Made by a program: the position numbers and the translations under genes. 64,000 nt of DNA, taken from positions 1 to 64,000 of IMG/VR virus record IMGVR_UViG_3300009553_000023; one strand, written 5' to 3'. Under the pieces are notes generated by a model. It saw only the letters and a program-made list of their open reading frames with translations, made no database searches and was not told where the DNA came from. The DNA comes from a virus. Positions 1 through 11,639 of the stretch are shown in pieces. The first letter of the stretch is position 1, and each line of letters begins with the position of its first letter.

Positions 1-50
1 CCCGCGATCCTACGCCAGCCGGCCTGCCAAGTCCTAATCTTGGCCCGTCC

Positions 51-123
51 GCCCCAGTAGCTCAGTGGACAGAGCACCGGCCTTCTAAGCCGATGGTCGC
101 TGGTTCGAATCCAGCCTGGGGCG
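51..123 (+). tRNA. tRNA-Arg (anticodon TCT)
   Basis: The sequence folds as a full cloverleaf. The acceptor stem is GCCCCAG (51-57) with CTGGGGC (116-122), TA follows at 58-59, and the anticodon loop CTTCTAA (82-88) carries TCT at 84-86. The T arm is GCTGG-TTCGAAT-CCAGC. One C-A mismatch sits at the base of the anticodon stem. No CCA is encoded. Its place at the window edge, followed by repeats and phage genes, suggests an attachment-site tRNA, but a phage-borne tRNA is also possible. Confidence 0.93.
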
Positions 124-129
124 TTCCAC

Positions 130-3045: not shown

Positions 3046-3863
3046 GCGCAACCGCCGAGATCCCAACGGTCCAGTTCGCTGCCGAGGAGCGGCCCGACTG
3101 CGGGTGGTGCACTGGGCCGGGCGACGTGCTCGTCGAGATCGAGAAGGACTCCAACCACTTCGTGGCGCGTTGCGATCGCTGCATCGACATGCCAGTCGAG
3201 CCCGACGAGGAGCACCTGAGCAAGAACGGCAAGCCCGCCTTCGACCTTACCCCGGAGCAACGCAACGCGATCTTCGCCGGCGACCACACCGCCATCAAGC
3301 TCAAACCCGGCGAGACCAAGCCAGAGGTAGAGGCAGGACAGACGGTCGTACTCGCTAGGTCTCGAGGCGGCAAGCAGTTCCTCGCCAAGACCGAGAGGGA
3401 GCGCAAGAAACGAGTGGAGGAAGGTCTCCCGCTCCTCGCCGAGATCCCGAGCGAGCCAACCGTCTGGATCGTCTTCCACGAGCCGAAGTTGAAGGAAGGT
3501 CGATGGCAGATCTCCTTCGACGCCCACGACACACGCGAAGCTGTCCGCACCCTCGCCAGCCCACCGACCGGCACACGCCTCCCCGGCCTCAAGACCCGCA
3601 AGCGCAGACGGGTCCCGAAGAAGGGCGAGTACAAAGCTCCAGGCCTCGGGCTCTCCGACGACGCAGCCCGCGGCTACGGAGGCGGTGGCAAGTCGACCGT
3701 TGATGAGCGCGAAGGTGTCGACGACGCCTCACTCCAGCGCTATGCGCAGCTCGCCGAAGAGGACGGTTTGAAGAGACGCACGAAGCACCGCCAGGCGGCC
3801 AAAATGATGGAGCGAGAGATGCGCGCTGCCGAGAATCGCAAGCGGAGATTGCCGTCCGCTTGA
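3042..3863 (+). CDS. Zinc-ribbon protein of the helicase operon
   Basis: This 273-residue protein begins with a four-cysteine zinc ribbon: CGWC near residue 20 and CDRC near residue 44. A middle region contains several beta strands and a conserved-looking IVFHEPKLKEGRWQISF stretch. The C-terminus is very basic and helical, rich in Arg and Lys. It overlaps the preceding stop by four bases and is the last gene before the large gene-free region. Nucleic-acid binding is likely from the ribbon and basic tail; the family is not recognised. Confidence 0.75.
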   Translation: MSATAEIPTVQFAAEERPDCGWCTGPGDVLVEIEKDSNHFVARCDRCIDMPVEPDEEHLSKNGKPAFDLTPEQRNAIFAGDHTAIKLKPGETKPEVEAGQTVVLARSRGGKQFLAKTERERKKRVEEGLPLLAEIPSEPTVWIVFHEPKLKEGRWQISFDAHDTREAVRTLASPPTGTRLPGLKTRKRRRVPKKGEYKAPGLGLSDDAARGYGGGGKSTVDEREGVDDASLQRYAQLAEEDGLKRRTKHRQAAKMMEREMRAAENRKRRLPSA

Positions 3864-3889
3864 ATCCGTCCGCTGCAACCGTCTAGACT
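3860..3889 (+). promoter_or_regulatory. Candidate promoter for the structured region
   Basis: TTGAAT (3860-3865) and TAGACT (3884-3889) are separated by 18 bases. Transcription from it would begin near 3896, five bases before the first helix of the structured region at 3901. That coincidence is the main support; the boxes match the sigma-70 consensus only moderately. Confidence 0.45.
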
Positions 3890-3895
3890 TATCGC

Positions 3896-4475
3896 GCTGT
3901 CCTGACCCAGGTTCGTCGCGGCCAATAGAGGCCGTCGCAGGTCAAGGGAACAGCCAGAAGTACCACCTCACCCACTTCTCCTTGGCGGCTTCGGTCGCAA
4001 GCGCTATGCCCTCGGAGCCCGTGCATGGGCTCGCTGGTCGCGGCCCCTTGGCCGGACGGGGTTCCGGTCGCGACCGGTTAATCCCAATCGAGGCAAGCGA
4101 AGGGGGCCCAACTTCAAGGACCGAGCCTGACCCTCTGGTCACTCGGTCTCACACTTCGGGGGACGGCTCGTGCGCGGGCACTCCTGTTCGGTAGCCAATC
4201 CGCGCAGGACCGCGTGTACGTAAAGAAGCTGGCCAGCGCCGACTCCCTCGAACCCTTGCAGGACCGCTCGCCCCCACCGCGAGCACATCGGACCAGCGGG
4301 ACCGAGACCTCGTCCCGTCGAGAGACGGATGAGCCGAAAGGCCCGACGAGGCCGGCCGCTGGCCGCTTCAAGGAAAGGACTGCAGCGATGAACGAGACCG
4401 TGACCACCTGGCGGCCCCGCAGCGAGAGCGCGCCTGGTCCACTGGAACGAAACCGCGAAACACGGCAGATCTGAG
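3896..4475 (+). ncRNA. Candidate large, ornate noncoding RNA
   Basis: About 600 bases carry no convincing gene but dense complementary pairing. Helices include 3901-3907 with 3940-3947 enclosing CGGCC/GGCCG; C(UUCG)G at 3989-3994; 4015-4020 with 4027-4032; 4036-4042 with 4069-4075 (7 bp) enclosing 4052-4056 with 4063-4067; 4119-4125 with 4142-4148 (7 bp) enclosing 4128-4132 with 4137-4141; 4170-4173 with 4178-4181; and 4293-4298 with 4357-4362 enclosing 4308-4314 with 4345-4351. The last pair closes a junction of two hairpins capped by GAGA (4320-4323) and GAAA (4336-4339) GNRA loops. Size and style resemble phage-borne ROOL and GOLLD RNAs; no family is assigned. Confidence 0.6.
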
Positions 4476-4477
4476 CC

Positions 4478-4591
4478 ATGTCCTTCATCTCAGGTGTAGC
4501 CATAGGCATCGCCTTCGTAATCGCAGTAGAGGCTGGGGTCATAGGCATCTGGTACCTGATCGTCAAGTACGGAGAAGGCAAGGGGGACTGA
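4478..4591 (+). CDS. 37-residue single-pass membrane peptide
   Basis: This short reading frame encodes a small peptide, MSFISGVAIGIAFVIAVEAG followed by a second hydrophobic stretch and a charged tail ending KGD. It would form one membrane helix with the tail on the other side. It sits directly after the structured RNA region and its stop overlaps the ribosome-binding site of the next gene. No clear site precedes its own ATG. Small membrane peptides are common in phages; the function is unknown. Confidence 0.5.
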   Translation: MSFISGVAIGIAFVIAVEAGVIGIWYLIVKYGEGKGD

Positions 4592-4600
4592 GGAGTTGCC

Positions 4601-4813
4601 ATGCCCTCCGTCAAGACAGCCAGGCGCCACGAACGCCGGCCAGGTCCATACCCAGCCGATCGTCATTGCTCCTGCGGCGCTGTCCTCTCCCGCAACAACC
4701 CAGGCCCTCTCTGCGCTCCATGCCAAGGAGGAGATTGGCACTCACCGGATGAGCTGAGCACGAGACGTGAACTCAACCTGGCCCGCGGGCGAGTTGAAGG
4801 GCTAGTCGCGTAA
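4601..4813 (+). CDS. Small zinc-finger protein
   Basis: This 70-residue basic protein has a CSCG and CAPC pair of knuckles about 14 residues apart, which should bind one zinc ion. A GAGGAG ribosome-binding site lies just before the ATG, and its stop overlaps the following start. The N-terminus is rich in Arg and His. Probably a small nucleic-acid-binding protein; no named family is recognised. Confidence 0.7.
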   Translation: MPSVKTARRHERRPGPYPADRHCSCGAVLSRNNPGPLCAPCQGGDWHSPDELSTRRELNLARGRVEGLVA

Positions 4814-5196: not shown

Positions 5197-5291
5197 CCCT
5201 CTTCCACAAAGAAGACACCCTCCTCATCCTCATCCTCATAGCCATAGGGAGCCTTGCCGCCATCGTCCTTATCCAGTGGAGATGGGCGTGA
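5193..5291 (+). CDS. 32-residue membrane peptide
   Basis: Translation restarts at an ATGA overlap on the nucleotidyltransferase stop and gives a 32-residue peptide. It has an acidic N-terminus, one long hydrophobic helix rich in Leu and Ile, and an end rich in Trp and Arg. The tight coupling and clean membrane profile support a real gene. Function unknown. Confidence 0.55.
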   Translation: MTLFHKEDTLLILILIAIGSLAAIVLIQWRWA

Positions 5292-5322
5292 GGCCTCCTC
5301 GAGGTATTCCGCCCTTGAGGCC
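5292..5322. terminator. Hairpin between convergent genes
   Basis: GGCCTC (5292-5297) pairs with GAGGCC (5317-5322) across a 19-base loop. It begins right after the membrane-peptide stop and lies just before the stop of the leftward HIRAN gene, the usual place for a shared terminator. No strong T-run follows on either strand. Confidence 0.4.
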
Positions 5323-5334
5323 GAGGCCGGTGGG

Positions 5335-5895: not shown

Positions 5896-7851
5896 ATGCC
5901 TGAATTTGATCTCAAAACGGATGTCGAGAACCGCCAGGACGGAGTTAGCGGTGAGACGCGTGTAGGCCCGGGAACTCCTGAAGCTGGCGAGGGCTACCAC
6001 GCAAAACTGCACAACGAAGTCAATGCGGCGGTTAATCAGGTTGGCGAAGAACTAGACTCGCTTGGCAGCGCAGCTACCAAGGCTGTAGGCGCGGCGGGCG
6101 AATCAGGGAAGGTACTCGCCTCCGATGACCCCGCGCTCGTCCGAAACGTCAAGAGTTTCGGCGCCAAAGGCAACGGTGCCACTGATGACGCAACGCCGAT
6201 CCGCGAAGCCATCAAAGCTGTCGCTGAAGCAGGCGGAGGGACGGTCTTCTTTCCTGCGGGGAACTACCGAATCGCTTCGAATGTCGCGCTCAAACCGAAG
6301 GTAGAAATAAGGGGTGCGGCGCGCGAGGCGACGCTGATCAAAGCCGACATCGGCGTCACGGTCGCGCCGTTTACGGCGACCGAAATTGAAGACACCGTCG
6401 TGCGCGACCTGGCGATTGACGGGGACGCCGTGGTCTTCGTCGGCAACACCTTTGGGATTAGCTGGACTCGGTGTAAACGTGTTCGCCTCACCAACGTTCG
6501 GATCAAAAACACGTACCACATCGGCGCCTACAGTACCGAATGCACGGACTACTCGATCGACAACTGCCTGCTTGACGAATGCGGGAAGACCTCTGCGACC
6601 CCGAACTGCATCCACGTGCTCAAGGGGACGCGCGCGAAGGTCGCCTTCAACACGGTGATCGATTGGGGCAACGGCGGGAACGGTCGTGCGGTCTACGTCT
6701 CCGAATCGCCAGAAACGCAGATCATCGGCAATAGCTTCGCCAATCCCGGTGGTGTCAACCACTCCCACATGATCTCGGTCGACGCCGCCTCGGACCGATG
6801 CGTCATCACCGACAACTTGCTGGAAAACAGCGGCTACCCCGGCGAAGGGCGCAAATGCGTCGGGATCAGCGTCATCAACTCCGATGACCCACTCATCGGC
6901 AACAACCGCATTAGGGAGCCCACGCAAGACAAAGGCTCCCTGGAGTGCATTCAGGTCGACGGAACGTCGAAGCGGGCGACGATCACGGGCAACCACTGCG
7001 AGTACGGCGATGACAATGGCATCACCGCGTGGGGCGCCGGCGAACACGTCGTCTCGGGGAACCTGATCGAGTTCGCCGCGCACCACGGGATCTCCGTGAA
7101 CTCGAACAACTGCACCGTCTCGGGCAATCTCGTCAAGAACTCTGGGCAGCACCCAGAAATCATCAACCCCTCGGGAATCGGGATTCTGAGCGGCGTAACC
7201 GGGACCGTCGTCACGGGCAATCGCTGCTTCGACGACCAGGCGACGAAGACCCAGCTCTGGGGCGTCATCGAGATCAGCACCGCCGACAAAAACACAATCC
7301 TCGGCAACGATCTGACGGGCAACAAAGAAGGTCCAGTTTCCTACGTCGGCGCCAACACGATCGTCGGCGCGAACCAAGGGATGACGCCTCGCAAGGGAGA
7401 GGTGGAGATCCACAATATTGGAGCGACCACTTTCGATGACGCTCGAGCCGCGGTGACGCCTCCACTCGGGACCCTGCTGTATCGAGAAGACACCGGCCAG
7501 CTTGCTGCCCGAACGGGGGCCAACATCTGGACGGCACTCGCGAAGGACAAGACCGCGACGCTGACCGATGGGGCCGGGGTGACCCCGAACTTCGCTAATG
7601 GCAACCACTTCATCCTGGTTGCTAAAGGCAATCGCACTATCAACAACGTGACCAATCGCCTGGCTGGTCAGACGATCACCATGAGCATCAAAAACGAAAC
7701 CGGTGGCGCGATGACAACCACCTGGAACGAAGCCTTCAAATTGGCTGGCGCCTGGGTCGACCCCGCCAATGGCAAACGGCGAACGATCACCTTCTACTGC
7801 TATGACGGCTCGAACTGGGAAGAGCTGAGCCGCTCGGCTGCGGATATCTAA
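5896..7851 (+). CDS. Tailspike with parallel beta-helix (pectate-lyase-like)
   Basis: A 651-residue protein with a pectate-lyase-3 type core. The motif SFGAKGNGATDDATPIREA is followed by AGGGTVFFPAGNYRI near residues 75-120, then many short repeats of the GN-x-I/V-x type that build a right-handed beta-helix to about residue 500. The C-terminal 130 residues look like a receptor-binding or trimerisation domain ending in aromatic strands. The N-terminal 90 residues probably attach it to the tail. Depolymerase activity on host surface glycan is inferred from the fold. Confidence 0.85.
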   Translation: MPEFDLKTDVENRQDGVSGETRVGPGTPEAGEGYHAKLHNEVNAAVNQVGEELDSLGSAATKAVGAAGESGKVLASDDPALVRNVKSFGAKGNGATDDATPIREAIKAVAEAGGGTVFFPAGNYRIASNVALKPKVEIRGAAREATLIKADIGVTVAPFTATEIEDTVVRDLAIDGDAVVFVGNTFGISWTRCKRVRLTNVRIKNTYHIGAYSTECTDYSIDNCLLDECGKTSATPNCIHVLKGTRAKVAFNTVIDWGNGGNGRAVYVSESPETQIIGNSFANPGGVNHSHMISVDAASDRCVITDNLLENSGYPGEGRKCVGISVINSDDPLIGNNRIREPTQDKGSLECIQVDGTSKRATITGNHCEYGDDNGITAWGAGEHVVSGNLIEFAAHHGISVNSNNCTVSGNLVKNSGQHPEIINPSGIGILSGVTGTVVTGNRCFDDQATKTQLWGVIEISTADKNTILGNDLTGNKEGPVSYVGANTIVGANQGMTPRKGEVEIHNIGATTFDDARAAVTPPLGTLLYREDTGQLAARTGANIWTALAKDKTATLTDGAGVTPNFANGNHFILVAKGNRTINNVTNRLAGQTITMSIKNETGGAMTTTWNEAFKLAGAWVDPANGKRRTITFYCYDGSNWEELSRSAADI

Positions 7852-11317: not shown

Positions 11318-11639
11318 GACCATCCTCTACCGAGGCCCAAGCGGTGTAACCATAGACTCGCAGGCGATGCTAGATGAGCTGCGCGCCACCAATCTCCGCC
11401 TGGTCTTGGAGAGCGCGAAGGAAGACCCCGTGACCTACCGGGTAGGTGGTGAGGATCACACCGTCCGTGGTTTCGATGATGAACCCTGGCGAGCCGAGAT
11501 CCACCCCGCCGACCGCAAGCAAGTCCTTGACTTCGAGGAAGGCAACGGACCGGAGAAGGTAGAGGGCGTAGCGCGCCTACTGCGCCGAGTCCTTCCTGAG
11601 CCAGCCAAGGTCGTTGCCCACATGTCCGATGTTGTCTGA
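11310..11639 (+). CDS. Hypothetical protein
   Basis: 109 residues, acidic N-terminal half and basic C-terminal helix (VEGVARLLRRVL). The start overlaps the preceding gene by 8 bases and its end overlaps the following short gene. No family recognised. Confidence 0.6.
   Translation: MPETILYRGPSGVTIDSQAMLDELRATNLRLVLESAKEDPVTYRVGGEDHTVRGFDDEPWRAEIHPADRKQVLDFEEGNGPEKVEGVARLLRRVLPEPAKVVAHMSDVV

What the first reader, a model, noticed from the sequence alone, without database searches (positions are those of the whole stretch)
3896..4475. Large ornate RNA candidate with nested GNRA-capped helices
Gene-free for about 600 bases, yet full of perfect nested helices (7-bp stems at 4036/4069, 4119/4142 and 4308/4345; a junction with GAGA and GAAA tetraloop hairpins inside a further 6-bp stem; a C(UUCG)G loop). 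A promoter-like pair ends six bases before the inferred start. Size and style resemble the ROOL/GOLLD class of phage-borne RNAs, whose roles are unknown; it may be a new family.
Basis: partly seen in the sequence, partly recalled or inferred. Interest (0 to 1): 0.87.

Follow-up and report, generated by a model that had tools for sequence, protein, structure and literature searches.

The report
Modular RNA cluster in phage tRNA slot
A 524-base gene-free stretch of an uncultivated phage is not one giant RNA but a chain of small folded RNA modules, shared piecemeal with nine related phage contigs where transfer-RNA genes often fill the same slot; one module is a structured RNA motif that is absent from the public RNA-family library.

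Summary
Comparison makes the region real. Nine related uncultivated phage contigs carry a mosaic of tRNA genes and short non-coding modules, and the window shares several of these modules. The 3' module 'D' (4290-4369) occurs once in the window and once in eight of the nine contigs. Its bulged-A helix GG(A)CCASCG/CGSTGGCC shows changes on both sides at six base pairs, and in four contigs it starts 1-3 nt after the tRNA end. A three-way-junction module (about 4155-4252) lies in a block 95% identical to a contig whose neighbouring coding DNA is only ~68% identical; its paired changes all keep pairing. Modules and tRNAs are joined by a strand-specific CTTC linker (77 seen, 33 expected), resembling the mycobacterial RNase E site R|CNU. 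No Rfam family matches, so it is not ROOL or GOLLD. Best reading: a precursor of tRNAs and tRNA-sized structured RNAs, cut at R|CUUC linkers; this phage keeps only the non-tRNA modules. Structure and conservation are shown; transcription, cutting and function are inferred.

The parts
3860..3889 (+). promoter-like element TTGAAT-18-TAGACT; its -35 overlaps the stop codon of the upstream gene; inferred RNA start about 3896
   Evidence: sequence; window 3858-3889 aligns at 81% with L006 5193-5224 and the element is inside the window/L002 alignment; strict consensus scan negative
3896..3954 (+). module A: leader hairpin, closed by GCTGTCC/GGAACAGC, with TGACC/GGTCA and GCGGCC/GGCCGT inside
   Evidence: aligned to L002 (window 3851-3992 ~ L002 1656-1792, 73%, E 1e-20); TGACC/GGTCA becomes TGATC/GATCA in L002; fold z -2.61
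   Evidence: no alignment in any relative
4112..4161 (+). module C: CTTC linker, stem GACCGAG/CTCGGTC with inner GACC/GGTC, then invariant GGTCACTCGGTCTCACAC
   Evidence: in L005, L024, L025
4155..4252 (+). module C': predicted three-way junction closed by TTCGGGGGA/TCCCTCGAA
   Evidence: 4137-4267 is 95% identical to L024r 1763-1892; 4 of 5 substitutions fall at paired positions and all keep the pair, one pair changed on both sides
4264..4288 (+). module E: hairpin CCGCTCG..CGCGAGCACATC, which takes the place of the tRNA 3' end before module D
   Evidence: in L006, L018, L024
4290..4369 (+). module D: bulged-A helix GG(A)CCAGCG/CGCTGGCC, inner helix and two GNRA-type hairpins (GAGA, GAAA), 3' tail GCTTC
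   Evidence: covariance model R1, one copy each in nine contigs including the window; covariation; fold z -4.61
4366..4369 (+). CTTC linker after D; others in the stretch at 3975-3978, 3989-3992, 4112-4115 and 4154-4157, all preceded by a purine
   Evidence: CTTC is the most enriched 4-mer, on one strand only, across the ten regions
4388..4474 (+). 28-codon ORF that bounds the RNA cluster on its 3' side
   Evidence: Shine-Dalgarno AAGGAAAGGA; conserved C-terminus in L006 and L018
4601..4813 (+). small Zn-ribbon-like protein gene that marks the slot in relatives
   Evidence: relatives in L002, L005, L006, L007, L024

Best explanation
Positions 3864-4387 are the RNA-gene slot of a phage operon. 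A promoter at 3860-3889 drives a transcript that, in related phages, is a string of tRNA genes and tRNA-sized folded RNA modules joined by short R-CUUC linkers. In this phage the slot holds only the non-tRNA modules (A, C, C', E, D), and it ends in module D just before protein genes resume. The linkers are most likely cut by a host single-strand endonuclease of the RNase E type that cleaves before C in R|CNU, which would release tRNAs (then trimmed by RNase P) and small stable RNAs such as D, leaving a 3' hairpin with one extra purine. D, placed right after the last tRNA or its substitute hairpin, most likely serves as the 3' cap of the cluster: it protects the RNA upstream and separates it from the mRNA downstream. 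Shown: modular conservation, D's structure, strand, linker enrichment, tRNA synteny. Inferred: transcription, cutting, the enzyme, D's capping role.
For: Relatives carry tRNAs beside the same modules, several with the same downstream gene. D: 8 aligned members, 96.2% of cells paired against 85.5% in shuffles (0/500), 6 pairs with two-sided changes, slid partners at most 59% paired; a ninth member (L007) was found by the model without being in it (E 2.4e-5). D begins 1-3 nt after ARAGORN's tRNA 3' end in L002, L013, L025, L032. Module C' changes keep pairs. Wobble pairs (U-G in D; G-U and U-G in C') fit only the + strand. CTTC 77 seen against 32.9 expected, reverse complement 32; 11 of 12 tRNAs in the relatives have CTTC within 25 nt upstream, binomial 1.4e-7 before allowing for relatedness. 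Mycobacterial RNase E prefers RR|CNU and cuts in vitro at RN|CNU (PMC10641625). The 131-nt block around C' is 95% identical to L024 against 68% in nearby coding DNA.
Against: No expression data. No host is known; an actinobacterial host is only hinted at by a helicase nearest to Arthrobacter phages at 49%. CTTC sites are not clearly more unpaired than shuffled ones in local folding (mean 0.30 against 0.23). Several modules and tRNAs are related by descent, so the counts are not independent. The tRNA control set outside the group is only 4 genes. The window's own tRNA-Arg (50-124) lacks the linker. Module C helices are nearly invariant, so they give no covariation support.
Confidence: 0.5

Rival explanations
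1. One single large ornate RNA (ROOL/GOLLD style) of about 490-580 nt that folds and acts as a whole, with the modules as its domains.
For: Contiguous, promoter at the 5' end, several domains with compensatory changes; ROOL and GOLLD also sit near phage tRNA islands and GOLLD can hold tRNAs in its linker (PMC12286853).
Against: Modules occur in different subsets and are separated by tRNAs or even protein genes in L024 and L025; global fold z only -1.57; no long-range pairing shown.
Confidence: 0.15
2. D and its neighbours are cis-acting 5' untranslated elements (riboswitch- or leader-like) that control the small downstream genes.
For: In the window, L006 and L018 D lies right before the same Shine-Dalgarno AAGGAAAGGA and a small ORF; module A has a leader-like place.
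Against: In L002 D is followed by a tRNA-Ile gene, and in L013, L024, L025 and L032 by other sequence or other genes; no alternative pairing with the Shine-Dalgarno seen.
Confidence: 0.13
3. D is a transcription terminator or attenuator at the end of the tRNA cluster.
For: G+C-rich hairpin at the 3' end of the cluster, right after tRNAs.
Against: No U tract and no terminator call; conserved bulged A, conserved GG/CC ends and conserved RCUUC are not needed for a terminator; genes continue on the same strand close by.
Confidence: 0.1
4. The modules are DNA-level elements, for example recombination or insertion sites that let phages swap tRNA cassettes, and the hairpins matter as DNA.
For: Mosaic, cassette-like exchange between phages; a 131-nt block at 95% identity among diverged neighbours.
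Against: G-U type substitutions that keep pairing fit RNA; one D per record, unlike cassette arrays; CTTC bias is strand-specific.
Confidence: 0.1

Closest known systems
ROOL and GOLLD RNAs
   Same: phage-borne, structured, unknown function, often near tRNA islands (PMC12286853)
   Different: no covariance-model match up to E = 10; modular small units rather than one 600-800 nt fold; each unit found in its own subset of phages
Stable non-tRNA RNAs of the phage T4 tRNA cluster (RNA C and RNA D; from my own knowledge, not read here)
   Same: small structured RNAs of unknown function made from the same transcript as phage tRNAs
   Different: no sequence comparison was made; the group here has a shared linker motif and several exchangeable modules
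tRNA operons processed by RNase E and RNase P in bacteria
   Same: polycistronic tRNA transcript with single-strand cut sites between units
   Different: sites here would be R-CUUC, like the mycobacterial preference R|CNU (PMC10641625), and some units are not tRNAs

Membership tests
ROOL / GOLLD / any Rfam 15 family | match to the family covariance model | tested here: not met
   no match for 3800-4650 up to E 10 except a chance miRNA hit at 4569-4611; only a tRNA at gathering score in the whole window; only tRNAs in relatives
ROOL / GOLLD | one continuous RNA of about 600 nt or more conserved end to end across phages | tested here: not met
   homology is in separate blocks in different subsets of phages
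ROOL / GOLLD | homo-oligomeric RNA cage | not testable with these tools
   needs transcript and cryo-EM
phage tRNA-cluster RNAs | located in a tRNA slot of related phages | tested here: met
   tRNA genes in L002, L013, L018, L024, L025, L032 next to the same modules
phage tRNA-cluster RNAs | co-transcribed with tRNAs and processed into stable small RNAs | not testable with these tools
   no RNA data
structured RNA motif (module D) | helix kept by changes on both sides | tested here: met
   6 of 13 pairs, 96.2% of cells paired
intrinsic terminator | G+C-rich hairpin followed by a U tract | tested here: not met
   scan negative; tail is GCUUCAAGG
protein-coding gene | reading frame kept between homologues | tested here: not met
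   insertions and deletions of 1 and 2 bases between homologues of C and D

The most novel reading that the evidence does not exclude
A phage-wide system of exchangeable, tRNA-sized structured RNA cassettes, punctuated by an R-CUUC cutting code and released together with tRNAs, with module D as a dedicated new RNA (for example a decoy for host nucleases that attack phage tRNAs, or an RNA that escorts the tRNAs).
Probability: 0.2. Interest if true: 0.8.

Novelty: new variant of a known kind. Interest (0 to 1): 0.6.

Why it matters
Phage tRNA clusters are common and their non-tRNA parts are seldom studied. Here a motif absent from Rfam, with good covariation, sits 1-3 nt after tRNA ends, and a single short linker punctuates nearly every unit. 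That turns the question 'what are the extra RNAs in phage tRNA clusters and how are they cut out' into a direct test with a short synthetic transcript and one purified enzyme.

Tried and rejected
Rfam at gathering score and at E 10: nothing but tRNA and a chance hit. BLAST of the stretch against 50,697 phage records: chance hits only. The pattern for D in bacterial genomes gave 68 hits that look like chance matches (broken or unrelated folds, no tRNA beside them seen by eye); they were not each scored with the model. The same pattern with A/T in the variable outer pair gave 7 hits in viral contigs, none in context (one weak model hit in L121, 23.6 bits, in A+T-rich sequence, judged chance). 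So the variable outer pair is C-G or G-C only in what was found. Protein-coding reading rejected because homologues differ by 1-2 base indels. Terminator reading weakened by the lack of a U tract. Host search with the terminase and helicase proteins in 396 genomes of one phylum gave at best one distant hit. A search for tRNA-like decay of module E was by eye only. A MAFFT alignment of six promoter regions was too noisy to use. Unpairedness of CTTC in local folds did not separate it from shuffles.

Full report
What was claimed and what is there. The gene-free part is 524 nt (3864-4387), because a 28-codon ORF with a Shine-Dalgarno and a conserved C-terminus starts at 4388. Single-sequence statistics are weak: 4 perfect 7-bp stems against 1.9 +/- 1.4 in dinucleotide shuffles, and 10 of 100 other tiles of the window have as many; global folding z = -1.57 on the + strand and -0.35 on the - strand. 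So the observation alone would not carry the claim.

Relatives. The upstream 273-aa protein has one relative in IMG/VR (L002, 77%). The small Zn-ribbon-like protein downstream (4601-4813) has relatives in L002, L005, L006, L007 and L024. A pattern for the conserved piece near 4290-4369 brought in L013, L018, L024, L025 and L032. Neither protein is found in the annotated phage collection. The window's record is itself a virus contig of 65,447 bases.

The slot. In L002, L013, L018, L024, L025 and L032 the comparable region holds tRNA genes (Met, Ile, Arg, Glu, Ser, Gln). All-against-all comparison of the ten regions shows separate conserved blocks, each in its own subset of phages: A (window and L002), C (window, L005, L024, L025), C' (window and L024), E (window, L006, L018, L024), D (window plus L002, L006, L007, L013, L018, L024, L025, L032), and others not in the window (X in L013, L018, L024, L025; a further hairpin in L013 and L025, perhaps also L002). 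In L024 the C/C' block and E/D are about 1.4 kb apart, with protein-coding sequence and two tRNAs between them. This is a mosaic of small units, not one large RNA conserved end to end.

Module D. Eight members were aligned. The helix GG(A)CCASCG/CGSTGGCC plus inner pairs gives 96.2% standard pairs (shuffles 85.5%, 0/500 as high), 6 pairs with changes on both sides, and at most 59% when the partner is slid. The search pattern fixed some of these columns, but it did not demand complementarity at the variable outer pair, and it left the inner columns and the 3/81 pair free. A covariance model built from them found a ninth member, L007, that was not in the alignment (35.7 bits, E 2.4e-5). A search of the ten whole records gave one strong copy per record, none in L005. 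Folding z is -4.6 (window), -5.6 (L006), -6.0 (L018), -7.2 (L024), -2.3 (L002) and -2.7 (L032). In L002, L013, L025 and L032 the motif's first G comes 1-3 nt after the tRNA end given by ARAGORN. In the window, L006, L018 and L024 it follows hairpin E instead.

Modules A, C and C'. Window 4137-4267 matches L024 at 95% over 131 nt although nearby coding DNA matches at 68%. Of five substitutions in the folded part, four lie at paired positions and every pair is kept, one of them by a change on both sides (UA to CG, 4230/4235); the wobble pairs fit only the + strand. This rests on two sequences. Module A shows TGACC/GGTCA changed to TGATC/GATCA in L002. Module C is nearly invariant, so its helix is consistent but not tested by covariation.

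The linker. Across 7,669 nt of these regions CTTC is the most enriched 4-mer (77 against 32.9 expected) while its reverse complement is at 32. Elsewhere in the same loci the rate is 6.3 per kb against 10 per kb here. Eleven of the twelve tRNAs in the relatives have CTTC within 25 nt upstream, where 19% would be expected by position alone (binomial 1.4e-7, not corrected for shared descent). The five copies in the window stretch all read R-CTTC. Mycobacterial RNase E cuts before C with purines upstream and U three nt downstream (PMC10641625), which fits R|CUU. The fit is suggestive only: the host is unknown, and local folding does not show these sites to be clearly more open than shuffled ones.

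What it does. The best-supported reading is a precursor RNA of the tRNA-cluster kind, cut at the linkers into tRNAs and tRNA-sized structured RNAs, with D as its 3' cap. The window's phage lacks recognisable tRNAs in the slot and keeps the other modules. The slot, the modular conservation, D's structure and the linker bias are shown; the transcript, the cutting enzyme and the roles are inferred.

Known kinds. It is not a member of ROOL, GOLLD or any Rfam 15 family. It shares with ROOL and GOLLD the neighbourhood of tRNA islands (PMC12286853). From my own knowledge, the phage T4 tRNA cluster also yields two stable non-tRNA RNAs of unknown function; no comparison with them was made. Hence 'new variant of a known kind'.

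Noticed in passing
L002 about 2520-2640: A sequence that begins and ends like a tRNA (CCCGGCGTAGCTCAG...GTTCGAATCTCGCCGCCGGGC) but has about 50 extra bases in the anticodon region; ARAGORN and Rfam do not call it. It may be an intron-bearing or broken phage tRNA.
   Followed up: no
L018 (- strand) 4420-4520, L024 (- strand) 11530-11630, L025 (- strand) 5912-6015, L013 4124-4200: Second recurrent motif after tRNAs: hairpin GGCAC-TCGC..GCGA-GGCCC followed by GGGCAGGYAGAG..CTCTRCCTGCYC and GCTTCTTCC, with compensatory changes by eye.
   Followed up: partly
window 5287-5334; L002 3732-3774; L005 1447-1540: Short recurring element that reads about MRPPRGIPPLRPRPVG, found at the ends of unrelated small ORFs in this phage group.
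   Followed up: no
window 4478-4591: 37-codon ORF for a small membrane protein (MSFISGVAIGIAFVIAVEAGVIGIWYLIVKYGEGKGD), with a relative in L005.
   Followed up: partly
window 50-124: Only tRNA gene of the window (Arg, TCT); it lacks the CTTC linker seen before the cluster tRNAs of relatives.
   Followed up: partly
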